Shown here piece after piece: positions 5,548 through 16,119 of a stretch of 64,000 nt of DNA (positions are counted from its first letter, which is position 1; the number at the start of each line of letters is the position of its first letter). The notes beneath the pieces are model-generated. The model saw only the letters and a list, made by a program, of their open reading frames with translations. It did not search any database and was not told the DNA's origin. Source of the stretch: Anabaena lutea FACHB-196 (GTDB lineage Bacteria > Cyanobacteriota > Cyanobacteriia > Cyanobacteriales > Nostocaceae). The translations under genes were made by a program, and so were the position numbers. The DNA is taken from contig NZ_JACJST010000023.1 of NCBI RefSeq assembly GCF_014698305.1, positions 1 through 64,000 on the forward strand, written 5' to 3'.

Positions 5548-5706
5548 GTTAAAAGTCTGTTTCTGTTTAAGTTTTATCAGTAGTTAATGTCCTAATCACC
5601 TAGCAAGTTGCTATCAATGTAAGGGTTTAGCATTGCGCTTTACCCCTACTAATTTAATCAATTTCATGAAATATAAAATCTTCACAACATAAATCCAAAC
5701 TGATTT

Positions 5707-6837
5707 ATGCAATATCGGCGTTTTGGGAAAACTAATTTACACTTCTCTGTTTTTTCTTTGGGAACAATGCGTTATTTGGCTAACGCAGAAACTGCCCAAA
5801 AAACCATTGAAAAAGCTTTATCTTTAGGAATTAATCACATTGAAACAGCTAGAGGTTATGGTAAAAGTGAGGAGTATTTAGGTGCAGCGATAAAAGCTGG
5901 TTTGTCAGTATCCAGAAATCAACTGTATATCACTACAAAAATTGCGCCCACACCCGATGCTGACACGATGCGTCAATGTATTGATGAATCATTACAACGT
6001 TTGAACATAGATTATCTTGATTGTTTGGGTATTCATGGTTTAAATACCCCAGAACATCTAGAGTGGGTACAAGCTAAAAATGGCTGTATGCAAGCTGTAG
6101 AAGAAGCAGTAAATGATGGTAGAGTAAAACACGTTGGGTTTTCTACCCACGCTTCATTAGATATAATTTTGGCAGCAATTAATACAGATTTTTTTGAATT
6201 TATTAATTTGCATTATTATTATTTTTTCCAACGCAATGATTTAGCTATTCAAGCAGCGACAAAAAAAGATATGGGTGTTTTTATTATTTCTCCTGCTGAT
6301 AAAGGAGGAAGACTGTATACACCACCCTCAACTTTAAAAGAACTCTGTCAGCCATTTACACCTTTAGAATTAAACTATAGATTTTTGTTGAGTGATAATC
6401 GCATTACAACTTTGAGTGTAGGTGCTGCAACTCCAGAAGAATTAATTGCACCTTTAGAAATTGCTGATCATGTTGGTGAATTAACTTCAGCAGAAATTGC
6501 TGTTTTAGAAAAATTACAAAATCAGCAAAGCATGGTTTTAAATACTGATAAATGTAGTCAGTGTTATGCTTGTTTACCTTGTCCTGAAAATATCAATATT
6601 CCTGAAGTTTTAAGACTGAGAAATTTAGCAGTTGCTTACGACATGAACGATTATGGAAAATATCGTTATGGAATGTTTGAAAATGCTGGTCATTGGTTTC
6701 CAGGAATGAAGGGAAATCGTTGTACAGAATGCGGTGATTGTTTACCTAAATGTCCTGAAAATTTAGATATTCCGGCTTTGTTAGCAGATACCCATGAGAG
6801 ATTAAATGGGAAAGCTGGGAGAAGATTGTGGGGTTGA
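5707..6837 (+). CDS. Aldo/keto reductase with C-terminal 4Fe-4S domain
   Basis: A 376-residue fusion. The first 270 residues form an aldo/keto reductase barrel (start MQYRRFGKTNLHFSVFSLGT; catalytic Tyr in ARGYG, Lys in ITTKIAP, His in LGIHGLN). The usual catalytic Asp before the Tyr is Glu here (HIETARGYG). The tail carries two cysteine clusters, CSQCYACLPCPENINIP from about residue 282 and CTECGDCLPKCPENLDIP from about 339, as expected for two [4Fe-4S] clusters. The tail suggests electron exchange with ferredoxin-like partners as well as NADPH chemistry. Substrate unknown. It stands alone, with long repeat-filled DNA downstream. Confidence 0.88.
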   Translation: MQYRRFGKTNLHFSVFSLGTMRYLANAETAQKTIEKALSLGINHIETARGYGKSEEYLGAAIKAGLSVSRNQLYITTKIAPTPDADTMRQCIDESLQRLNIDYLDCLGIHGLNTPEHLEWVQAKNGCMQAVEEAVNDGRVKHVGFSTHASLDIILAAINTDFFEFINLHYYYFFQRNDLAIQAATKKDMGVFIISPADKGGRLYTPPSTLKELCQPFTPLELNYRFLLSDNRITTLSVGAATPEELIAPLEIADHVGELTSAEIAVLEKLQNQQSMVLNTDKCSQCYACLPCPENINIPEVLRLRNLAVAYDMNDYGKYRYGMFENAGHWFPGMKGNRCTECGDCLPKCPENLDIPALLADTHERLNGKAGRRLWG

Positions 6838-6850
6838 TATAGTAAGAATT

Positions 6851-7015
6851 TGTCAGAATCAGGATTTCCAGGATTTAAGGATTTTCAGGATTAAGAGATT
6901 AAATTTGTCAGAATCAGGATTTCCAGGATTTAAAGATTTTCAGGATTAAGAGATTAAATTTGTCAGAATCAGGATTTCCAGGATTTAAGGATTTTCAGGA
7001 TTAAGAGATTAAATA
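6851..7015 (+). repeat. Three direct repeats of 55 bp
   Basis: Three head-to-tail copies start at 6851, 6906 and 6961 with only one or two differences between them. The unit contains tgtcagaatcagg, ttccaggatttaagg and attttcagga. Diverged relatives of the same unit fill 29990-30425. Confidence 0.95.
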
Positions 7016-7145
7016 TTTTAATTAATACCCATGTTCTGTGAAGATGAATCAGCATAAATATGATTACATCACTTGTAAAATAAAATATTTTATTGGGAAA
7101 TACTAAATTCTGAAAATCTGCAAATTATTTTCATCATTATGCAAC

Positions 7146-7193
7146 CAAAATCCTGTTAATCCTCTAATCCTGGATATCCTGATTCTGACAATA
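7146..7193 (-). repeat. Inverted copy of the 55-bp repeat
   Basis: This stretch reads, on the other strand, ttgtcagaatcaggatatccaggatt and so on. It is an inverted and slightly diverged copy of the units at 6851-7015, about 130 bp away. Together they could form a long cruciform or stem-loop. The remaining gap up to 7412 is AT-rich and presumably holds the promoter of the three-gene unit. Confidence 0.85.
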
Positions 7194-7412
7194 AAAATAT
7201 GAGAAATTCGTTAATCAACTATTACAACATTTTTATATTCAGTGTTATGTAACTGGTAAATTTATAATTTACGTAAATTCTCTATTGCTTTTTATATCGA
7301 TAAATTGAGCTATTTATCGACAAAATCGAGAAAATAAAGAATATTTTGACTTGGGCGCAATAAAAAATACAATCATTACTATAATAATCTTAGTTATTTA
7401 ACACACATCATC

Positions 7413-8072
7413 ATGAGTCCAAAAACAAAGGAATTACAGGCGGGTTACGCTCAAACTCGCTTACTGCTTGCGTTGTGGGATTTGGGAGCAAATAAACAGG
7501 AAGTGAAAAAAGGCTTACTGACGAAGCGGATAGTGGCTAAGGGTCAGAAGATGACCGACTATAAGGGGATTTTAGAGGATTTGCAAACGCAGGGGGCTAT
7601 TACTGTTTCTAGGACTGGTTATACTCTCACGTCACCAATAGGTTTAGAAGTGTTGGGTGCGGGTTTGCGTAGTGAAGAGTTTAAGTTTGAGGGGACTATT
7701 GTTGGTACTTGGGCTGCTAATGCGTTGTTGCGGTGGATAGGTCTGATTGATGTTGTGGTTGCTGCGCCGGTTGCGTCAGGTAATGGGGTAATTGGTTCTT
7801 ATGAGGAGTTTAAGTCTGTCGCATTGGATGTTTATGACAAGTTAAACAAGGATTACAGCCTAGATGATTTAGTACCTATCTATCGCATTAGAAGAGAAAT
7901 AGGTGAACAAGTTAGTCGTGAAAAATTCAATAAATGGCTGTTAGAAATGCAGGAGAAAGATATTTTACAACTGCAAGGTGGAAGTTTACCAGACAATGAC
8001 CCAGTAAAACTAGAAGATTCAGTAATTACTGAAGTCAGTGGGTTACGTTGCTATGCCAAGCGTTTAAATTAG
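7413..8072 (+). CDS. Winged-helix-like protein, first gene of a three-gene ATPase/nuclease unit
   Basis: A 219-residue protein I cannot assign to a named family. Residues about 12-75 look like a winged helix: a helical stretch (TRLLLALWDLG), a helix pair ending GILEDLQTQGAI, and a beta-hairpin wing TVSRTGYTLTSPIG. A second similar module seems to lie at about 150-200 (LVPIYRIRREIGE, SREKFNKWLLEMQEKDILQLQGG). Two winged helices suggest DNA binding or a structural partner of the ATPase encoded 67 bp downstream on the same strand. Base composition of the first 300 bp is richer in G than that of the following genes. Role inferred from context only. Confidence 0.7.
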   Translation: MSPKTKELQAGYAQTRLLLALWDLGANKQEVKKGLLTKRIVAKGQKMTDYKGILEDLQTQGAITVSRTGYTLTSPIGLEVLGAGLRSEEFKFEGTIVGTWAANALLRWIGLIDVVVAAPVASGNGVIGSYEEFKSVALDVYDKLNKDYSLDDLVPIYRIRREIGEQVSREKFNKWLLEMQEKDILQLQGGSLPDNDPVKLEDSVITEVSGLRCYAKRLN

Positions 8073-8139
8073 TTTACTAATTTTCGTAATTTTTCTACTT
8101 TTCAACTAGCTCTCATACATAACTACTGCAAAGAAATCC

Positions 8140-9930
8140 ATGTCTAATACATTAAGTGATGCTATTAATAACAACAACCCATTTGAGGGACGTTTAGTAG
8201 TTAGAAGTAATAATGTTTGGGGAAAAAGTTATCCTGATGTTCTCTCTTTAAATGCCCATGCTTCTGATGCTATTTATGATGCAATTGAAAAAGTAAGTAC
8301 CGGACAGAGACAAATTGTAGGTATTACCATTACAGCAGAACGAGGGTTAGGGAAAAGCCATCTTATTAGCCGAATTCGCCATAAATTACAAATTGACGGT
8401 AGTGCATTATTTGTGTATATGAGTCAATGTAATAATCTAAATCGTATTAAAACAGAATTTTTAACTACTTTGGCAAATAGTCTCAAACAAATAGGTAGCC
8501 AAGGTGTGAGTCAATGGCAAGAATTAGCAACAGCTTTAATTAATGAAGCTTTTAATCAAAACTATGTACCTCAAAATCTAATCAATAATTTTCCTGGAGC
8601 ATTATCTAAAAATCCTAAGTTAGTAGAAGTTTTGCGCGATAAAGTCCTTGCTGTTAAGTCAGATATAGAAAATCCTGACATTATTACTGCAATTTTATGG
8701 ACACTTTCTCCTGACCCAGCGTATGAAATATTTGCTGTTCGATGGCTTGCTGGTGGGAATGTACCACAAACTAAAGCTGATTCCATGAGTTTAGCTAATG
8801 TGACTCCAGATGATAAAGAAGCTGAGTCATTCAACACTGCTAGGCAAATTCTTGATTTAATTGGTGATTATAAACCAATAGTAGTTTGTTTTGATGAAAT
8901 GGAAGCTGATCACTGTAATGATCTAGGATATACTGCCAGACAAGTGACTGCTATATTGGCTAAAGATTTATCTGATAAAATTAAACGAGGTATTTTACTA
9001 ACATCTATTTTCCCCGATCATTGGATTAACGAAGTTAAAAGATTATCAAATGCTGAATCGGTTGTAGATAGAATAGGTGAAAAAGTTATTGAACTAAAAT
9101 ATCTCAATTCTGATGATATTATTCTTTTAGTATCTGGATGGCTTGATGAATTTTATCAGGAAAAAGGATTGACACCACCTAATTCAGTTTATCCATTTGA
9201 TGAAGCAAAACTGAGAGCATTAGGTAAGGAAAAACCAATTGTCAGAAAAGTTTTGCAATGGTGTTCTGAAAATTTTAAACCTGATCCAATAAAAAAAATA
9301 GATCCTGTGGAATGTGCTTATAATCAACAATTAGCTGCTTTGGAAACCACTATCCAAGATTATATGGAGGATAAAGGAACTCTTACTCAAGCCCTGCGAT
9401 TAGGATTTACTGTAATAAAAGGAGAAGTTTTAGAAAATGTGCAAGTTGTAGATATAGTGGATGTTCAAGTAAAAGCTGCTGATAGAGGCTATCTAGATTT
9501 TAAGATTATTGGCAAAGAAAACGGTAAAGATGTCAAAATTGTAGTAGTAGTATTACAAGAATCGGGTGGAATGTTGGTTCAAGCAACATTGAAACGATTA
9601 ATAGAGTACAAGAAGTTTGATATGACTCGTGGTTGTTTAGTTCGTTCTAAACAAATTGGTAGAAATGCAGCTAAAGCTCAACAGTATTTGAGTAAACTTT
9701 TATCACCAGATTTAGGTGGTGAATGGGTTTTGTTAAAACCAGAAGATATTAAACCACTTTTAGCTTTACATTTTCTGATGAAAAGTCGTGAAGATGAAGA
9801 GTTAAGCGAAGAGGAAATCATAGATTTTATTCGCAAAAAGCGTATAGCAACTAATAATTATCTGATTTGTGAAATTCTTAGTGATCCTTCTGGTCAAGTT
9901 CCTAAAGATGCTATTGATGAAGAAAGTTAA
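8140..9930 (+). CDS. P-loop ATPase of unassigned family, middle gene of the unit
   Basis: A 596-residue ATPase. The Walker A region is TAERGLGKSH (residues 65-74); it has GLGKS, but Ala replaces the first Gly of the usual GxxxxGKS. Walker B is IVVCFDEME (247-255), and a sensor-1-like GILLTSIFPDHW follows near 285. This layout fits an AAA+/STAND-like NTPase. The region around 440-550 (RGYLDFKIIG, IVVVVLQESGG, KKFDMTRGCLVRS) resembles a restriction-endonuclease fold without a clear ExK, so it may be a degenerate domain. No membrane segment is seen. It lies between a winged-helix gene and a nuclease-like gene on the same strand, which suggests one complex. Confidence 0.75.
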   Translation: MSNTLSDAINNNNPFEGRLVVRSNNVWGKSYPDVLSLNAHASDAIYDAIEKVSTGQRQIVGITITAERGLGKSHLISRIRHKLQIDGSALFVYMSQCNNLNRIKTEFLTTLANSLKQIGSQGVSQWQELATALINEAFNQNYVPQNLINNFPGALSKNPKLVEVLRDKVLAVKSDIENPDIITAILWTLSPDPAYEIFAVRWLAGGNVPQTKADSMSLANVTPDDKEAESFNTARQILDLIGDYKPIVVCFDEMEADHCNDLGYTARQVTAILAKDLSDKIKRGILLTSIFPDHWINEVKRLSNAESVVDRIGEKVIELKYLNSDDIILLVSGWLDEFYQEKGLTPPNSVYPFDEAKLRALGKEKPIVRKVLQWCSENFKPDPIKKIDPVECAYNQQLAALETTIQDYMEDKGTLTQALRLGFTVIKGEVLENVQVVDIVDVQVKAADRGYLDFKIIGKENGKDVKIVVVVLQESGGMLVQATLKRLIEYKKFDMTRGCLVRSKQIGRNAAKAQQYLSKLLSPDLGGEWVLLKPEDIKPLLALHFLMKSREDEELSEEEIIDFIRKKRIATNNYLICEILSDPSGQVPKDAIDEES

Positions 9931-10007
9931 ATTAACATAGTAGCTTTTACTGATGTTCAAGCCACAATTTATTTTTTCTAAATAAGCATTAATAATTGAT
10001 TAGGATA

Positions 10008-11534
10008 ATGATTAATACAGCCCTACGTGTACCAGCAGCAGAAATGGAGGCATTATTGTATGGGAGAATAATCGCAGTCATACCTAATAGTTTCCTTTCT
10101 CCTGGACGAGAATTTGCTCTATGTCCAACAGATGGATCAAGTAATGTTCTAGCAGTTGAGGATTACTATCGCTTGAGTTTCTTGCCTATTGCTCAAAGTG
10201 CATTTGTAAAATTAGACAGTCAGGGTATTTGGTTTCAACCTCAGCAAACAAGTTTACTTAGAGATAATGAACAATTACAGCTACCTTTGTTAGCTCATCA
10301 AACATTATCTATTAAAGCTTGGGCTAGATGCGAACTGTGTCAAGATATAACAAATATTGAATCATTAGCTCCTTTATCAAGGTTAACTATTTGGACACAA
10401 AAAGCTTTAGAGGAAATACTCAGACAAAGGCAAAAGATTTTTCTGGCATATTTGCGAGTATATCAGTTGTCTAAATCAATTGAAATAGTAGTAAAGTCAA
10501 ATAGTCAGTTTGTACCATTACCTGATTATCTGAATGTTTCTGAAGCTAAACCCGTATTAAGTGATCATATATTTACCCGACGCAAATATCAATTAGAAAA
10601 CCTAGAACCTCCCTTATATCCTGAACTAGAAGAATTACAAAGTGGATTATCACAAATAGCTAATAATAACCCAGCAGCACAGCAATTAGAAACTGAAATC
10701 AAAGTATTTTTAGGTTGGAGTAATGAACCAACTACAAATACGATAAATTCTGATTTAGATTGGATAAAAACAATTGCAGCATTAGGAGATAGAAGTATAG
10801 AACTAGAAGAGAAAAAAAGCAACTATCAAGCGGGTACAGACTTTGAAAACATCTCCCGTCAAAGCCTTGATTTTTTAGGGTTTAAAGTTGAAAATGCTTA
10901 TAAAGGTGGTGCTGGAGGTTTAGACTTATATTGTTCCCAACCTTATCCTTTAGTGTGTGAATGTAAAGCAGGTAGAAGTATTCCAGATCGTGCAGTAGAA
11001 GAATTAGATAGAATTGGTAAAAGACATCTGCAAGAAAATTATCTGCAAGCAGTACGCTTAATTATTGGGCCTGGTGAACCTACGAAACAACTCAGACAAT
11101 CTCTCCAGAAATCTGCGAAAATATCTAAAACCAGTATTATTAAAGCTATGACATTACAAAAATTAGTAGAAATTAAAGCAAAATATCCAGGTGCAATAAA
11201 CTTAATTGAATTACAGAAATACTTAGAACCGGGACAAATCGATGATAAAATTAATGAATATATTGATAAAATTGAAAAAGATATTAAATTGCGATCGCAC
11301 ATTATCCAACTCGTCAAAAAACATCTAGAAAAAACAGATGCTAAAGATACTCAAGTTGGTGATCTTCGCATAGCATATCTTTATGATCATCCACCTCAAA
11401 ACTTAGAAAATAGAGAATTATATGATATTCTCATAGAACTTTCATCACCATTAATCGGCTATTTAGGAAGAATTAAAGCAAGTAATTGGGAAAACGATAA
11501 ATTTTACTACCTACGTGACTTACCAATCAATTAA
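10008..11534 (+). CDS. PD-(D/E)XK nuclease-like protein with N-terminal PUA-like region
   Basis: A 508-residue protein if it starts at the ATG at 10008; a TTG at 9996 would add four residues. A restriction-endonuclease-like core lies at about 280-345: FENISRQSLDFLGFKVE, then Asp306 in GGAGGLDLYC, and Glu318 and Lys320 in VCECKAG. This is a complete D-(x)n-ExK catalytic set. The N-terminal 40 residues (AEMEALLYGRIIAVIPNSFLSPG) resemble the start of PUA/ASCH-type domains that read RNA or modified bases, a weaker inference. The middle and C-terminal parts are helical and unassigned. It is the last gene of the three-gene unit, 77 bp after the ATPase. Likely a DNA-cleaving effector. Confidence 0.72.
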   Translation: MINTALRVPAAEMEALLYGRIIAVIPNSFLSPGREFALCPTDGSSNVLAVEDYYRLSFLPIAQSAFVKLDSQGIWFQPQQTSLLRDNEQLQLPLLAHQTLSIKAWARCELCQDITNIESLAPLSRLTIWTQKALEEILRQRQKIFLAYLRVYQLSKSIEIVVKSNSQFVPLPDYLNVSEAKPVLSDHIFTRRKYQLENLEPPLYPELEELQSGLSQIANNNPAAQQLETEIKVFLGWSNEPTTNTINSDLDWIKTIAALGDRSIELEEKKSNYQAGTDFENISRQSLDFLGFKVENAYKGGAGGLDLYCSQPYPLVCECKAGRSIPDRAVEELDRIGKRHLQENYLQAVRLIIGPGEPTKQLRQSLQKSAKISKTSIIKAMTLQKLVEIKAKYPGAINLIELQKYLEPGQIDDKINEYIDKIEKDIKLRSHIIQLVKKHLEKTDAKDTQVGDLRIAYLYDHPPQNLENRELYDILIELSSPLIGYLGRIKASNWENDKFYYLRDLPIN

Positions 11535-11597
11535 AAATAACTCTTCTCTCTGTGCCTCTGCGTCTCTGCGAGAAAAAATTATTCCAACCAAAAAACA

Positions 11598-11630
11598 AAA
11601 TCCCCGACTTCCTAAAGAAATCGAGGATTT
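11598..11630 (-). terminator. Rho-independent terminator of pgi
   Basis: A 14-bp stem with two G-U pairs and a 4-nt loop (arms 11598-11612 and 11617-11630). On the minus strand it is followed by a T-rich run (tgttttttgg). It lies about 20 bp past the pgi stop codon and could also stop transcription of the three-gene unit coming from the left. Confidence 0.75.
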
Positions 11631-11650
11631 AATTAACAAAGATAATTTTA

Positions 11651-13237
11651 TTAACCGAGAGAAACAGTTAAACTACCAGGTTTAGCCAAATCACCAGTTA
11701 ACACCACACCGCGATTATTAGCGTGTAAATGACGGAGAATTTTGTAAACTGCTTCAACTTCATCAGCAACGCCGGCTTTATCAGCAACTTCAGTAATAGA
11801 AAGTGCTTTTTGCTCTTTTTGCAAAACTTCCAAAACTCGTTTTTGTAAATCGAGAATGACAGCAGCGGCTTTTTTACCAGCTTCTACACCTGGTTGGTGA
11901 TAAGCGTTGACATTTACTAAACTGGCATATAAACCTACAGCCCGTTCATACAAAGCAATTAACGCGCCAACTGTGCGAGCATTAACTTGAGGAATACTGA
12001 CTGTAATCGAATCGCGGTTATTCTCATACAGCGCTTGACGTGTTCCTAACAAGAAACCAGACAAATAATCACCAGCAGTCACACCAGGATCAACTTCTAT
12101 CGATTTTCCTTGACGATCTTCTAAAACTTCAATCAAGGTAGCAAAGAAATTGGGTACACCTTCCCGCAACTGCTGTACATAAGCGTGTTGGTCGGTTGAA
12201 CCTTTGTTACCATAAACAGCAATACCTTGATAAACGGTTTTTCCGTCTAAATCTTTTTCCTTACCCAAAGATTCCATTACCAGTTGTTGCAAATAACGGC
12301 TAAATAGCAACAAACTGTCTTTGTAAGGAAGGACAACCATATCTTTTTCACCTTTGCCATTTCCAGAGAAATACCAAGCAAGGGCTAATAAAGCGGCTGG
12401 GTTATTTTTGAGATTAGCGACGCGTGTAGCGTCATCCATTTCTTTTGCACCATCCAGCATGGCACGGACATCAATGCCCTGTAATGCCGCAGGAACTAGC
12501 CCTACAGCGGACATTTCTGAGGTACGTCCACCTACCCAGTCATACATCGAAAACCGGGCTAACCAATTTTCTGATTTTGCGACTTTATCTAGGTTGCTAT
12601 CTACGCCGGTAATTGCGATCGCATATTTAGCAAATTCTAAATTTTGTCCTGCATAGGCTTTTTTCACCTCAATCATCCCGTTGCGAGGTTCGGGAGTTCC
12701 TCCAGATTTGGAAATCACCAATACCAAGGTGCTGGAAAGATGGTTTTGTAGTTGGGAGAGAACCCGATCAATTCCTGCGGGATCGGAATTGTCGATAAAG
12801 TGAATTTTGAGCGGGGGAAAATCAGGTGCGAGGGCTTCAGCGACAAATTGGGGTCCCAAGGCAGAACCACCAATGCCTATAGAAATAATATCGGTGAAGC
12901 GGCTAGACTTAGGCGGATGAATAGCACCAGTGTGTACCTTTTCCGCAAAAGCTTCGATTTGTTCTAAGGTTTGGACAATTTCTTGCGTCAGTTCTGGAGT
13001 GGGTGCTAAATCTGGATTCCGCAACCAGTAATGACCTACCATGCGGTTTTCATCTGGATTGGCGATCGCACCTTTTTCCAGTTTTGCCATATCCGCAAAC
13101 GCTTTGTCAAACTTCGGCTGCAACGATTCTACAAAGGCATCATCAAACCGCATCCGGCTAATATCTAGATACAGTCCCAATCCCTCGTGGAAATATAACC
13201 AATCTTGGTATCGTTGCCAAAGTGCCTTAGCATCCAT
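11651..13237 (-). CDS. pgi: Glucose-6-phosphate isomerase
   Basis: A 528-residue cytosolic enzyme interconverting glucose 6-phosphate and fructose 6-phosphate, linking glycolysis, gluconeogenesis, glycogen metabolism and the pentose phosphate routes. Family signatures are visible: [12 protein letters not shown] for phosphate binding, DNSDPAG, the loop [13 protein letters not shown], and [11 protein letters not shown]. The length matches the cyanobacterial form. Start [10 protein letters not shown]. It is transcribed alone towards the three-gene unit, and a clear terminator hairpin follows the gene. Confidence 0.96.
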
Positions 13238-13364
13238 AAGAGGGAAATCTCAAATATATTGGTCAAACACCAGTTTAATGTATGGTTCTAGCGATCCCTG
13301 CTTTGTCTTATACAGTTTACATTTAGGAGACAACAGGGAATGAGGAAGGGAGAACAATTAGAAG

Positions 13365-13508
13365 GTGATTCGTAATTCGTAATTCGTAATTCGTAATTCG
13401 TAATTCGTAATTAAGTTATTCTTGATTTTCTCCCCATCACCCCATCACCCCATCACCCCATCACCCCATCACCCCATCACCCCATATCCCCATCACCCCA
13501 TCCCCCCA
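13365..13508. repeat. Two adjoining short-repeat arrays (ATTCGTA and CCCCATCA)
   Basis: The 280-bp gap between pgi and the RelE-like gene holds about seven copies of attcgta (13367-13413) and then about nine copies of ccccatca (13431-13508, one copy altered to ccccatat). Copies within each array are almost identical. No gene seen. Confidence 0.92.
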
Positions 13509-13517
13509 GTCTCCAGC

Positions 13518-13778
13518 TTAGACATCTGGTATCGGGACTACACGTAAAAATTTGACTAGTTCACCCCTAATTTCTATGCCAATAAGATAATTATCTATGG
13601 TAAAGCGATAAAAAATACCTTGTTCATCAAGCTGTCGCAATTCTGGCAGGCCATGCAAATTCCACTTGTGTGCAGCACACTCAACAAAAACAAAATCATA
13701 CACCCGTTCATAAGCAACGGGTTCTAAACTCTTCAGATCTATCAAAAAAGACCTAGCATAGCGCACATCCAGATTCAC
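13518..13778 (-). CDS. RelE/HigB-like toxin family protein
   Basis: An 86-residue protein with the RelE/ParE-superfamily pattern: an N-terminal basic strand-helix (VRYARSFLIDLKSL), the central LHGLPELRQL, and late strands (FYRFTIDNYLIGIEI, VKFLRVVP). Relatives are mRNA interferases or gyrase poisons held in check by a partner. The start is a GTG at 13778; the frame is open a little further up to a TAG, but no better start codon lies there. The likely partner is the small gene 42 bp upstream. The gene ends right against the CCCCATCA array. Confidence 0.72.
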   Translation of the reverse strand: MNLDVRYARSFLIDLKSLEPVAYERVYDFVFVECAAHKWNLHGLPELRQLDEQGIFYRFTIDNYLIGIEIRGELVKFLRVVPIPDV

Positions 13779-13820
13779 AGCTTGCTCACCAATTTTTTTT
13801 GCTAACTTTGATGTCTAAAC

Positions 13821-14018
13821 TTAGAGGAACATTAATAATCTTATCGCCTCCTCATGGGTTAATATATCCCACGGCTGCTGCAATGACTTGACTTGTTCCA
13901 TAGTTTTAAGCATATGAGAGTCAAAATGTACAGCCTGGACAAGTTCCCAAGCAGTCTGTAAATCCTCATCAGCTAATTGTTCAATCAGATGATGCATTCT
14001 GATTCGCAGTAAATTCAT
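13821..14018 (-). CDS. Putative antitoxin, partner of the RelE-like toxin
   Basis: A 65-residue acidic protein upstream of the toxin gene on the same strand, in the usual antitoxin-first order. The core (LIEQLADEDLQTAWELVQ) resembles small antitoxins of cyanobacterial RelE pairs; no DNA-binding domain could be named. The pairing rests mainly on position and size. The upstream region runs into a repeat block. Confidence 0.55.
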   Translation of the reverse strand: MNLLRIRMHHLIEQLADEDLQTAWELVQAVHFDSHMLKTMEQVKSLQQPWDILTHEEAIRLLMFL

Positions 14019-14137
14019 AAAATTTAATGACGAGCAACACTCTATCTAATAACAATACTTTTTCCACCAGAATAGCAATGATTGACAGTGATCTCCGACA
14101 ATACCCAAGTTACACTACAATCTATTCGCCTGCATGG

Positions 14138-14336
14138 GAGATGGAGAGATGGGAAGACGCGGAGATGGGAAGACGCGGAGATGGGAAGACGCGGAGATGG
14201 GAAGACGCGGGGACGCGGAGAAAATGAAGAATAACTTAATTACCTATTCCCAATAACCAATGACCAATGACCAATGACCAATGACCAATGACCAATGACC
14301 AATGACTAATGACCAATGACTAATGACCAATAACTA
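14138..14336. repeat. GGGAAGACGCGGAGAT array followed by AATGACC heptamer array
   Basis: Between the antitoxin and livM lie about five copies of a 16-bp unit (gggaagacgcggagat, 14138-14222) and about eleven copies of aatgacc (14256-14336). The second array ends only a few bases before the livM start. An open frame of 66 codons here is simply translated repeat. Confidence 0.92.
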
Positions 14337-14339
14337 ATT

Positions 14340-15473
14340 ATGATTGAATATCTGATTTTTCTGGCTATTTCTACGGCAACTTTTGCCCTGTTCGCACTAG
14401 GACTGAATTTGCAATGGGGCTTTACAGGGTTAATTAACTTCGGTCATATTGCTTTTATGACTTTGGGCGCATACACCGCTGTCTTGTTAAGTTTAAAAGG
14501 TGTACCCTTATTATTTTCAGCGATCGCAGGGGCAATTGTTGCGGCTTTGTTGGGTTTAGTAATTGGTTTTGCAACTTTGCGCTTACGGGAAGATTATTTA
14601 TCAATTGTCACAATTGGGACAGGGGAAGTGATCCGCTTGGTTGTGAATAATCAGGAGTTACCTGTGGGAGATACTTGGGTAGCTGGAACGTTTGGTATCC
14701 AAAGTTATGCCATCCCATTGAACGCAACTCCCAGTTTATTTTTGCGACTGCTAATGATTGGGGTACTTACCCTGTTAGCAATTGTCACTGTTTTTTATTT
14801 AGGACGCTGGGTAAAATCAGCGAAAATATCCTTAAGTAAGGATGTAGCTAAAACCAACAGTAGCAAACAAGAATTTTTATCCCGCTTAGGAGTGGGTATA
14901 ATCCTGGGATTGTTGATATTAGCAATTTATGTTTCTGGTGTGACTGGACTTTATAACTACAACCCTAAAGCCGGCTTGATGCTGTTAGCGTTGTTGGTAT
15001 TGGCCTTTGTATTTTGGCGGTTAGAAATTTTAGTGCGATCGCCTTGGGGTAGAATTCTTAAAGCTATCCGCGAAGATGAAGAAATTCCCAAAGCACTGGG
15101 GAAAAATGTCTTTTGGTATAAACTACAATCATTAATGTTAGGCGGTGCGATCGCAGGTATCGCAGGTGCTTTCTTCTCTTGGCAACTCAGCGCCATTTAC
15201 CCTGATAACTTTCAACCCCAACTCACCTTTGATGCTTGGATTATGGTGATTTTAGGCGGTTCTGGCAACAATGTCGGTACAATCTTAGGTGCAGTCATAT
15301 ACTTTGCTTATGATGCCCTGACAAGGGAATTTTTACCAAAAATCGTCCCCTTAGATGTAGAACGTATTGGTGCTTTTCGCGTTATGTTTATCGGTCTAAT
15401 TCTGATGGTACTGATGATTTGGCGACCTCAAGGTATATTAGGGAAAAAGGAAGAACTCACTCTTGGTAAATAA
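14340..15473 (+). CDS. livM: Branched-chain amino acid ABC transporter permease (LivM/NatD type)
   Basis: A 377-residue inner-membrane permease with about ten hydrophobic segments. It has the LivM signature region LNLQWGFTGLINFGHIAFMTLGAYTA near the N terminus and the coupling loop RSPWGRILKAIREDE (about 230-245) that contacts the ATPase. It is longer than E. coli LivM core regions because of a charged loop at about 160-185. It would form the channel of a neutral or branched-chain amino acid importer such as the cyanobacterial Nat system. The ATPase gene lies downstream, separated by an unrelated gene; no periplasmic binding protein or LivH is adjacent. Confidence 0.85.
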   Translation: MIEYLIFLAISTATFALFALGLNLQWGFTGLINFGHIAFMTLGAYTAVLLSLKGVPLLFSAIAGAIVAALLGLVIGFATLRLREDYLSIVTIGTGEVIRLVVNNQELPVGDTWVAGTFGIQSYAIPLNATPSLFLRLLMIGVLTLLAIVTVFYLGRWVKSAKISLSKDVAKTNSSKQEFLSRLGVGIILGLLILAIYVSGVTGLYNYNPKAGLMLLALLVLAFVFWRLEILVRSPWGRILKAIREDEEIPKALGKNVFWYKLQSLMLGGAIAGIAGAFFSWQLSAIYPDNFQPQLTFDAWIMVILGGSGNNVGTILGAVIYFAYDALTREFLPKIVPLDVERIGAFRVMFIGLILMVLMIWRPQGILGKKEELTLGK

Positions 15474-15522: not shown

Positions 15523-16119
15523 ATGGCTTATAGCGATTTCAAATTGCAGGAAATAGTTAAGAAATTCAGTTTAACCATTAATGAAAAAACTGATTTATTT
15601 GCTGATGCACCAGAAATAGAATGTAGTGAAGTTTTAGCTGCGGTACTAAAAACCACGGTTCCTTTGGCATTAGCAATTAACACTGAAAAAGCTCGCTCTG
15701 AAATGATAATTGCTCCTGTTTTAATTGAAATAAAAAATAAATTCTCAGAAAAAATTAGTTTATTCTCAGGTGTTGATTTTAATGTAGAACCAGAACAAGG
15801 GTTGAATGGTATTTGTGATTTTTTAATTAGTAAATCCTCAGAACAACTCTTTATCACTACACCGGTGATCACAATAGTTGAAGCAAAAAATGAAAATATA
15901 AAATTGGGATTAGGGCAGTGTGTTGCCGAGATGATAGCAGCACAATTATTTAATCAAAAGGAAGGAAATTCTATAGATTCGATTTATGGTATTGTCACTA
16001 CAGGCAATATGTGGAAATTTTTGAAGCTACAAGAACAATCGATTTATATTGATTTCAGTGAATATTATATTAAAGATATCAATAAAATATTAGGTATCTT
16101 ATGCAAATTCATTGGTTAA
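15523..16119 (+). CDS. Restriction-endonuclease-fold protein of unknown function
   Basis: A 198-residue cytosolic protein between livM and livG on the same strand (49 bp and 37 bp gaps). I know this type only as a hypothetical protein. The pattern at about 85-135 (GVDFNVEP, LNGICDFLIS, ITIVEAKNENIKLGLGQCVAEMIAAQLFNQ) matches the D-(x)n-ExK core of type I restriction HsdR-like nucleases, with Asp in GICDFL and Glu and Lys in VEAK. A later helix carries the Gln expected in that family (GLGQ). It has nothing to do with amino acid transport as far as can be seen. AT-rich compared with livM. Confidence 0.65.
   Translation: MAYSDFKLQEIVKKFSLTINEKTDLFADAPEIECSEVLAAVLKTTVPLALAINTEKARSEMIIAPVLIEIKNKFSEKISLFSGVDFNVEPEQGLNGICDFLISKSSEQLFITTPVITIVEAKNENIKLGLGQCVAEMIAAQLFNQKEGNSIDSIYGIVTTGNMWKFLKLQEQSIYIDFSEYYIKDINKILGILCKFIG

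What the first reader, a model, noticed from the sequence alone, without database searches (positions are those of the whole stretch)
7413..11534. Unnamed three-gene unit: winged helix, P-loop ATPase, PD-(D/E)XK nuclease
Three same-strand genes with 67-77 bp gaps encode a double winged-helix-like protein, a 596-residue ATPase (GLGKS P-loop, IVVCFDE Walker B) and a protein with a complete D306...E318-x-K320 nuclease core and a possible PUA/ASCH-like N terminus. The set does not match any restriction, BREX, DISARM, Wadjet or Zorya system I can recall. An ATPase plus nuclease plus DNA-binding partner next to repeats is a typical layout of genome-defence or DNA-processing systems. A PUA-like part could read modified bases.
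Basis: partly seen in the sequence, partly recalled or inferred. Interest (0 to 1): 0.75.

Follow-up and report, generated by a model that had tools for sequence, protein, structure and literature searches.

The report
Cyanobacterial nuclease operon with swapped cassette
Three neighbouring cyanobacterial genes look like a chromosomal machine for recognising and cutting foreign DNA, and related strains appear to have swapped its probable recognition half as one block while largely keeping the cutting half, which makes its specificity testable.

Summary
The three genes are real and form a conserved operon: in order in 37 of 40 fetched matching loci; 103 intact sets, 91 distinct, in all. Models and profiles give: g1, a conserved partner of unproven fold; g2, an Orc/Cdc6-type AAA+ ATPase with a probably dead nuclease-like domain; g3, an ASCH (PUA-like, Pfam DUF1802) domain plus an intact PD-(D/E)XK nuclease. 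D306, E318 and K320 are kept in 90, 91 and 91 of 91 copies. Rakesh et al. 2024 already predicted this combination, in one sentence, as counter-invader; I found no experiment. The architecture is not new.

New here: the operon is a mosaic. Against Anabaena catenula, the start of g1, the nuclease half of g3 and the flanking pgi gene match at 77-97% of four-fold sites; the end of g1, all of g2 and the ASCH half of g3 at 36-47%. An old, diverged allele was swapped in. Of 206 pairs with one domain at least 90% identical, 172 have another at most 60%; more conserved flanking genes gave 0 of 115. I read this as a swappable recognition cassette on a more constant nuclease, in a dispensable restriction-like system. 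Target and specificity are untested.

The parts
7413..8072 (+). g1: 219-aa partner protein, DNA-binding type by inference; residues 1-145 conserved among close relatives, the tail exchanged
   Evidence: conserved part and tail; homologous to the first protein of a sister operon (hhalign probability 98)
8140..9930 (+). g2: 596-aa Orc/Cdc6-type AAA+ ATPase
   Evidence: Pfam KAP_NTPase over its cut-off and AAA_16 under it; model pLDDT 89.4; Foldseek Cdc6 1fnn E 5.4e-5, 2qby E 1.4e-4, BrxC 9zll E 1.0e-3; the top row by E is a mitoribosomal protein, 9hqv
8335..8358 (+). g2 P-loop, residues 66-73
   Evidence: K72 in 91 of 91 copies, G69 in 91, S or T at 73 in 91
8878..8898 (+). g2 Walker B, residues 247-253
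   Evidence: D252 in 91 of 91, E253 in 83 of 91 with Q 7 and D 1
9373..9732 (+). g2 C-terminal alpha/beta domain, residues 412-531, with the element order of a PD-(D/E)XK fold but no conserved catalytic set (probable inactive REase)
   Evidence: element order; D453 in only 39 of 91 and no K among the commonest residues at 475; an inactive REase at this place in such ATPases is described in print; hhalign against the g3 nuclease found nothing
10008..11534 (+). g3: 508-aa ASCH - PD-(D/E)XK protein with a C-terminal part that may be a winged helix (alternative TTG start 9996)
10020..10586 (+). g3 ASCH-like domain (Pfam DUF1802), residues 5-193
   Evidence: Pfam E 2.8e-26, place; Foldseek ZmASCH 5y6b/5guq prob up to 0.99 and DNA-bound TRIP4 ASCH prob up to 0.85
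10821..11144 (+). g3 PD-(D/E)XK core, residues 272-379, with E280, D306, E318, K320
   Evidence: element order; HindIII 2e52/3a4k prob 0.97-1.00 at E 0.013-0.015; residues kept: E280 91, D306 90, E318 91, K320 91 of 91
7973..10541 (+). exchanged cassette relative to Anabaena catenula: end of g1, all of g2, ASCH half of g3 (edges approximate)
   Evidence: blastn and synonymous-site identities; amino-acid change points g1 166 and g3 178 for this pair; L029 holds the named A. catenula FACHB-362 record L089 whole
11651..13237 (-). pgi (Pfam PGI), conserved chromosomal flank
   Evidence: Pfam E 2.5e-60; 92.4% DNA identity to A. catenula over 11591-14500; pgi tree does not reject the genus as one clade
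6847..7014 (+). 3.1 copies of a 55-bp tandem repeat upstream of g1; no link to the operon shown

Best explanation
A chromosomal, three-protein, restriction-like counter-invader system. Shown: g2 models as an Orc/Cdc6-type AAA+ ATPase; g3 joins a PUA-like ASCH domain to a PD-(D/E)XK nuclease with all catalytic residues; the genes are co-inherited; the block {tail of g1, g2, ASCH half of g3} has been replaced as a unit while the nuclease half stayed, in the window's closest relatives and in many other pairs. Inferred: g1 and g2 assemble on DNA; the ASCH domain, matched to its own ATPase, checks a chemical or sequence feature of the DNA (perhaps a modified base); ATP use by g2 then licenses the g3 nuclease to cut invading DNA. 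On this reading ATPase plus ASCH is the exchangeable recognition half, and the nuclease half the more constant effector. My estimates: counter-invader role about 0.7; ASCH as the DNA reader about 0.5; cassette equals specificity about 0.5.
For: Folds and motifs. Operon conservation. Dispensable: among 60 genomes (the window's own and 59 relatives) a strong g2 match is in 39 (my count of best E below 1e-50; G016 only a fragment) and a g3 match in 40 (G043 and G051 only partial); g3 in 50 of 292 cyanobacterial genomes at E <= 1e-10, partial matches included; the home site lacks the operon in L194 and L195. Allele replacement: four-fold sites against A. catenula identical at 95% (g1 1-145), 36-43% (g2), 37-42% (g3 1-178), 77-97% (g3 179-508), 85% (pgi). 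Holding the 5 genomes of the genus together is rejected for g2 (p-AU 3.8e-68) but not for pgi (p 0.15) on the same 14 loci. Of 49 pairs with ASCH >= 80% identical none has g2 <= 60%; of 268 pairs with the g3 linker >= 80%, 194 do. The same role was predicted in print for this gene set. A PUA-like sensor fused to a nuclease is a known layout of modification-dependent restriction enzymes (passages).
Against: I found no experiment. g2 is absent from 72,556 plasmid and 50,697 phage records and g3 from the plasmid records, and no g3 relative was confirmed in viral contigs; mobile defence genes often turn up there. Neighbours are often housekeeping genes, and 9 of 10 window neighbours scanned have no PADLOC match. 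Cassette edges may simply lie where DNA is similar enough for crossover, so co-exchange need not mean functional matching; 10 of 72 pairs with g2 >= 80% have ASCH <= 60%. The nuclease half is not strictly constant: the genus clade is also rejected for the nuclease core (p 6e-6) and the g3 C-terminus (p 1e-4). The pairs are not independent, and the flanking control genes are more conserved overall, so that control is not matched. No Foldseek match of g3 reached E 0.001, and its first row by E is an Orc-type complex, not a nuclease. In HhiV4I the PUA-like domain seems not to sense the modification (passage).
Confidence: 0.55

Rival explanations
1. A non-defence DNA-maintenance machine (repair, replication restart or chromosome segregation) built on an Orc/Cdc6-like ATPase and a structure-specific nuclease.
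For: Chromosomal, often beside housekeeping genes (pgi in 14 and mdh in 11 of 40 fetched loci), absent from the plasmid, phage and viral sets searched; many of the best fold matches of g2 are replication initiators.
Against: No g3 match in 20 of 60 genomes, 19 of them at least 90% complete; apparently damaged copies, e.g. a stop in g2 of G016 and G036, g3 in pieces in G051 (sequencing error not excluded); replacement by saturated alleles beside conserved flanks.
Confidence: 0.15
2. A suicide or abortive system in which g3 cuts host nucleic acid, possibly RNA, once the ATPase senses infection.
For: ZmASCH, a structural match of the N-terminal domain, is a single-strand RNase by the title of a reference seen; the printed account links related Orc/Cdc6 genes to TIR and NACHT fusions.
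Against: PD-(D/E)XK enzymes mostly cut DNA (recalled); the best nuclease match is HindIII; cassette exchange beside a more constant nuclease fits changing recognition rather than changing a host target.
Confidence: 0.15
3. A remnant of a mobile element: an Orc/Cdc6-like target-selecting ATPase with a TnsA-like nuclease, after loss of the transposase.
For: Rakesh et al. call such neighbourhoods mobile; weak TniB matches in two sister ATPases (E 0.045 and 0.085); an OrfB_IS605-type transposase family lies near the operon in 3 of 40 loci.
Against: That transposase family is in only 3 of 40 loci; the same chromosomal surroundings recur; not found on plasmids or phages. I did not annotate every ORF.
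Confidence: 0.05
4. Exchange of the middle block is neutral: conserved ends merely allow homologous recombination and the alleles are functionally equal.
For: Breakpoints lie at the edges of conserved DNA; outer parts are exchanged too.
Against: Flanking genes show no comparable mosaic (0 of 115 pairs), though they are more conserved and so not a matched control; diverged g2 alleles of one genus mostly have their nearest relatives in other genera. Whether selection keeps the alleles was not tested.
Confidence: 0.3

Closest known systems
Orc/Cdc6 + ASCH-REase + DndG-like wHTH neighbourhoods (Rakesh, Aravind, Krishnan 2024, PMC10853773; section 22 read whole)
   Same: Same three components; an inactive REase domain in such ATPases is described; counter-invader role proposed.
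   Different: Described there in one sentence as mobile neighbourhoods, unnamed and untested; here at recurring chromosomal sites, not found on plasmids or phages, with an exchanged middle block.
HerA/FtsK capture systems (same paper)
   Same: A sister operon in relatives of the window has homologous g1 (hhalign probability 98) and ATPase (100) and a third protein with 3'-5' exonuclease, PDDEXK_1, FtsK-alpha and FtsK motor domains, much as that paper describes.
   Different: Its third protein shows no similarity to g3; the focal operon has no translocase.
SspFGH / DndFGH phosphorothioate-linked restriction (PMC8092258, passages)
   Same: Three-gene restriction arm with a Walker ATPase; the sister third protein matches PADLOC SspH at E 1.3e-69.
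   Different: No HerA/FtsK gene in the focal operon, no PADLOC match of its proteins to these families, no modification gene among 10 window neighbours scanned.
BREX (BrxC) (PMC12839542, passages)
   Same: Orc/Cdc6-type AAA+ with winged helices; Foldseek BrxC prob 0.97-1.00.
   Different: No BREX match in PADLOC among the three proteins and 10 window neighbours.
Type IV modification-dependent restriction enzymes with PUA-like sensors (PMC7641849, PMC11037411, passages)
   Same: PUA-superfamily domain fused to a nuclease.
   Different: Many of those are single chains; here an Orc/Cdc6 ATPase and g1 are constant partners. A 6mA-reader role of ASCH domains is called predicted, not shown; only a 4mC-related role is credited with support.
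Type I restriction HsdS specificity exchange (recalled)
   Same: Recognition part exchanged beside more constant motor and nuclease at a fixed locus.
   Different: Here the exchanged unit spans a gene end, a whole ATPase and part of the nuclease protein, and no methyltransferase was found beside it.

Membership tests
Orc/Cdc6 + ASCH-REase + DndG-like wHTH neighbourhood (Rakesh 2024) | Orc/Cdc6-type AAA+ ATPase | tested here: met
   Foldseek Cdc6/Orc matches at E 5.4e-5 to 2.2e-4, prob 1.00; Walker A and B conserved
Orc/Cdc6 + ASCH-REase + DndG-like wHTH neighbourhood (Rakesh 2024) | inactive REase between AAA+ and C-terminal wHTH of the ATPase | tested here: inconclusive
   element order fits and catalytic residues are not kept; no direct fold or profile match
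Orc/Cdc6 + ASCH-REase + DndG-like wHTH neighbourhood (Rakesh 2024) | active REase fused to an ASCH domain | tested here: met
   fold and residues only, activity not tested:
Orc/Cdc6 + ASCH-REase + DndG-like wHTH neighbourhood (Rakesh 2024) | DndG-like triple wHTH partner | tested here: inconclusive
Orc/Cdc6 + ASCH-REase + DndG-like wHTH neighbourhood (Rakesh 2024) | mobile gene neighbourhood | tested here: not met
   conserved chromosomal flanks; not found in plasmids or phages. Descriptive in the paper, so I do not treat it as defining the components
SspFGH / DndFGH | HerA/FtsK-type third protein | tested here: not met
   g3 is ASCH-PD-(D/E)XK; the HerA/FtsK version is the sister operon
SspFGH / DndFGH | coupling to phosphorothioate modification genes | tested here: inconclusive
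   none among 10 window neighbours; DndC is over the cut-off in 55 of 60 genomes, in the window's genome on another contig; operon-bearing G017 has no DndC match and G057 only a weak one
BREX | PglZ, PglX and BrxC-family proteins | tested here: not met
   no PADLOC BREX match among the three proteins and 10 window neighbours between 260 and 16116; not every ORF was scanned
Type IV modification-dependent restriction | sensor-type domain fused to nuclease | tested here: met
Type IV modification-dependent restriction | cleavage depends on DNA modification | not testable with these tools
   needs biochemistry
Restriction, DISARM, Wadjet, Zorya and other PADLOC systems | match to a PADLOC model | tested here: not met
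   only typeIV_Cas6 at E 0.0075 for g1, nothing for g2 and g3 at E <= 1; NCBIfam: no match over its cut-off

The most novel reading that the evidence does not exclude
A restriction-like system whose specificity is a multi-gene cassette: an Orc/Cdc6 ATPase, the ASCH reader of the partner nuclease and the tail of g1 are exchanged together by recombination at a fixed chromosomal site, so that strains change what they recognise while keeping the cutter.
Probability: 0.4. Interest if true: 0.75.

Novelty: new member of a known kind. Interest (0 to 1): 0.55.

Why it matters
The gene set has been predicted in print to act against invaders but, as far as I found, never tested. The exchange pattern gives a handle on how it works: it separates a candidate recognition half from a candidate effector half, and natural alleles within one genus make a ready experiment. 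If true, it would show that Orc/Cdc6-type ATPases in defence carry or co-define specificity, which bears on BREX, SspFGH and HerA/FtsK capture systems.

Tried and rejected
Rejected: a known PADLOC or NCBIfam system. PDB relatives by sequence: none for g3, none convincing for g1; the weak YTH and FtsY matches for g2 were not pursued because they cover short stretches. The g3 nuclease as a relative of the PDDEXK_1 nuclease of the sister operon: no hhalign signal. In-place rapid evolution as the cause of the diverged middle: rejected, since synonymous sites are as diverged. Promoters: consensus matches at chance level (21 found, 21.2 expected). Dependence on phosphorothioation: not informative, since DndC is nearly universal. 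Home site as a defence hotspot: weak. I read the pgi locus of 13 genomes without a g3 match (one of them, G016, keeps g1 and a piece of g2 elsewhere): one holds a retron-type reverse transcriptase with a Schlafen/TPR protein (L196), one a NACHT protein (L198), one two genes that look like FAD enzymes by eye (L192), one a kinase-like/HopA1 pair (L193), two lack the operon with only small or unassigned ORFs between its usual neighbours (L194, L195); the other seven have other surroundings. Led nowhere: literature searches (listings only). The sister operon could not serve as a mosaic control, since no pair reached 90%. Not used: a 91-row FastTree count of nuclease-type changes, 12 on the g2 tree, because I ran no shuffled control for it. 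Rows dropped: L055, L062 and L063 from the g2 and g3 trees because of duplicate ATPases, and copies outside length limits; triplets outside length limits and exact duplicates, 103 to 91. From the tool kept only the best 80 of 256 g3 relatives. Alignments A4 and A5 took 62 and 58 sequences, the window included, chosen from 79 and 75 usable ones plus the window.


Full report
What is there. The three genes stand as described. g1 (7413-8072) has no Pfam match. g2 (8140-9930) matches KAP_NTPase over its cut-off and AAA_16 just under it. g3 (10008-11534) matches DUF1802 over residues 5-193 at E 2.8e-26. PADLOC and NCBIfam give nothing useful for the three. Only one paper in the library mentions DUF1802 (listing only).

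Folds. The g3 model (62 sequences, pLDDT 83.9, pTM 0.55) shows an N-terminal mixed alpha/beta domain, a helical linker, then helix 272-290, strands 307-311 and 315-319, helix 328-341, strand 349-354, helix 360-372, strand 375-379: the PD-(D/E)XK order as I know it, with D306 and E318-x-K320 at the expected strands. Foldseek returns HindIII (prob 0.97-1.00, E 0.013-0.015) and ASCH domains (ZmASCH prob up to 0.99; TRIP4 ASCH with DNA up to 0.85). No match reached E 0.001, the first row by E is an Orc-type complex, and several Orc, PadR and cohesin-head rows suggest, but do not prove, a winged helix at the C-terminus. The g2 model (58 sequences, pLDDT 89.4) matches Cdc6/Orc (E 5.4e-5 to 2.2e-4) and BrxC (E 0.001); the first row by E is a mitoribosomal protein. 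After the AAA+ part it has helix 412-425, strands 434-441, 454-460 and 463-471, helix 477-488, strand 497-502, helix 511-521, strand 528-531: the same nuclease-like order, but D453 is kept in only 39 of 91 and no catalytic lysine is conserved. I call it a probable inactive nuclease domain.

Conservation and distribution. In 60 genomes (own plus 59 relatives) g3 matches in 40, g1 in 42, and g2 in 49, the last including a distant sister family. I fetched 40 matching loci: 37 have g1-g2-g3 in order on one strand, among them one with a short g1 (L030), one with g2 split (L054) and one with an extra ORF between g2 and g3 (L059); the other three (L060, L067, L068) are partial. In GTDB contigs 256 relatives of g3 were confirmed and the best 80 kept; all 80 titles name cyanobacteria (genus names recognised by me), so spread beyond Cyanobacteria was not examined. 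In 292 cyanobacterial genomes g3 matched in 50, some partial. No match in plasmids for g2 and g3, in phages for g2, or in viral contigs for g3; g1 was not searched there.

Surroundings. pgi is in 14 and mdh in 11 of the 40 fetched stretches, both in L037, L047, L048 and L050 (identities of window pgi and of one mdh by Pfam). Ten window neighbours between 260 and 16116 gave no PADLOC match except the 198-aa protein at 15523-16119, labelled PD_DExK, CRISPR-associated. A pair of small genes (clusters 3 and 5) recurs, in 13 and 11 of the 40 stretches.

A sister operon. In relatives, a g1-like and a g2-like gene (hhalign probabilities 98 and 100) precede a different third gene, in the one copy scanned by Pfam with DNA_pol_A_exo1, PDDEXK_1, FtsK_alpha and FtsK_SpoIIIE domains; its C-terminus matches PADLOC SspH at E 1.3e-69. 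So the first two genes appear to be a reusable core with different third genes.

Mosaic structure. L029 contains the named Anabaena catenula FACHB-362 record L089 whole. Identity per domain between the window and L029: g1 N 93, g1 C 73, g2 44/44/39, ASCH 50, linker 93, nuclease 100, C-terminus 95. DNA identity is 92.3% over 5698-7972, 89.0% over 10311-11547 and 92.4% over 11591-14500, with only two short patches of 68-76% between 7973 and 10310. Four-fold sites: g1 1-145 95%, g1 146-219 47% (15 sites), g2 36% and 43%, g3 1-178 37% and 42%, g3 179-508 88, 77 and 97%, pgi 85%. This speaks against fast change in place and for replacement by an old allele. L031 and L030 show the same for g2 and the ASCH half, with the g3 C-terminus also diverged (64 and 67%); in L032 the nuclease core differs as well (40%).

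Generality. In 91 distinct operons, of 62 pairs with g1 N >= 90% identical, 43 have the ATPase <= 60% and 32 the ASCH <= 60%; of 21 pairs with the ATPase >= 90%, none has ASCH or g1 C <= 60%. At 80%: 49 ASCH pairs, 0 with ATPase <= 60%; 72 ATPase pairs, 10 with ASCH <= 60%. Of 206 pairs with any domain >= 90%, 172 have another <= 60%; in seven flanking genes, cut into four segments each, 0 of 115. Those genes are more conserved and come from 7-14 loci each, so the control is not matched. Estimated change points fall in g3 residues 180-189 in 81 of 113 pairs and in g1 residues 160-189 in 65 of 110. Pairs share ancestry, so these are descriptions, not independent events. On 14 loci with both genes, one clade for the five genomes of the genus is rejected by g2 (p-AU 3.8e-68) but not by pgi (p 0.15); on 34 loci for g2, p-AU 7.6e-38. 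By part of g3, with 35 loci: residues 1-100 p 0.011, 101-265 p 0.085, nuclease p 6e-6 (driven by L032 as I read it), C-terminus p 1e-4. The nuclease core comes in two types, long in 77 and short in 14 of 91, both keeping E280, D306 (one G in a long copy), E318 and K320. So parts of the effector half are exchanged too; the block from g1 tail to ASCH is the largest unit.

Site. Of 13 genomes without a g3 match, the pgi locus lacks the operon without a clear replacement in two (L194, L195); single genomes hold there a retron-type reverse transcriptase (PADLOC RT-Protease_XI, E 1.1e-137) with a Schlafen/TPR protein, or a NACHT protein. This suggests a variable site but is too few to call a defence hotspot.

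Literature. Rakesh et al. 2024 (PMC10853773; [quoted passage not shown] I read that as covering both the sister and the focal operon; their supplementary lists were not seen, so I cannot say that these very genes are among theirs. Searches showed me no experiment on it and no account of the mosaic; most of those papers I saw as listings only, six as passages, and most subscription papers and bioRxiv preprints are not held. A 6mA-reader role of ASCH domains is called predicted, not shown, in the passages seen.

Mechanism. Shown: folds (as models), motifs, co-inheritance, exchange. Inferred: the ATPase with g1 loads on DNA, the ASCH domain tests it, and the nuclease cuts. That ATPase and ASCH travel together and often away from the nuclease suggests they form the recognition half; contiguity and crossover-friendly ends could also produce this. 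DNA phosphorothioation genes are nearly universal here (DndC over the cut-off in 55 of 60), so a PT-reading role cannot be excluded, but G017 has the intact operon (L039) with no DndC match, and G057 (L064) only a weak one.

Verdict. Observation confirmed; defence reading plausible and already in print; the swapped cassette is the new and testable part.

Noticed in passing
L069-L087 (e.g. L083:5987-11679, L075:6218-11658): Sister operon with homologous first two genes and, in 14 of the 20 fetched stretches L069-L088, an exonuclease-PDDEXK-FtsK type third protein, several times near ParA-like genes (by eye); fits the printed HerA/FtsK capture systems.
   Followed up: partly
G000:C1:454489-455823 and 54 relatives: DndC (DNA phosphorothioation) is over the cut-off in 55 of 60 genomes, far more widespread than the operon.
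   Followed up: partly
L196:6772-9083: Retron-type reverse transcriptase beside a Schlafen-AlbA_2/TPR protein between mdh and pgi, where some relatives carry the operon.
   Followed up: partly
L198:8163-11345: NACHT protein with an FGE-sulfatase domain between pgi and mdh.
   Followed up: partly
window 15523-16119: 198-aa protein matching PADLOC PD_DExK (labelled CRISPR-associated) at E 2.1e-54, inside the branched-chain transporter genes.
   Followed up: no
L055, L062, L063: A second ATPase gene lies upstream of g1, so the ATPase may form mixed rings.
   Followed up: no
L046:12732-13094, L044:7084-7404 and similar: Recurrent small genes (about 120 and 106 aa; the larger looks retropepsin-like by eye) near the operon in 11 and 13 of 40 loci, in several copies in L051 and L053; no Pfam match for one of each.
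   Followed up: no
L067, L054, L060: Apparently damaged copies: g2 with stops (L067, L054) and g3 in pieces (L060).
   Followed up: no
window 13432-13508, 14146-14210, 14250-14331: Short tandem repeats of 8, 16 and 7 bp (92, 100 and 93% matches) around the 86-aa ORF and before the branched-chain transporter gene.
   Followed up: no
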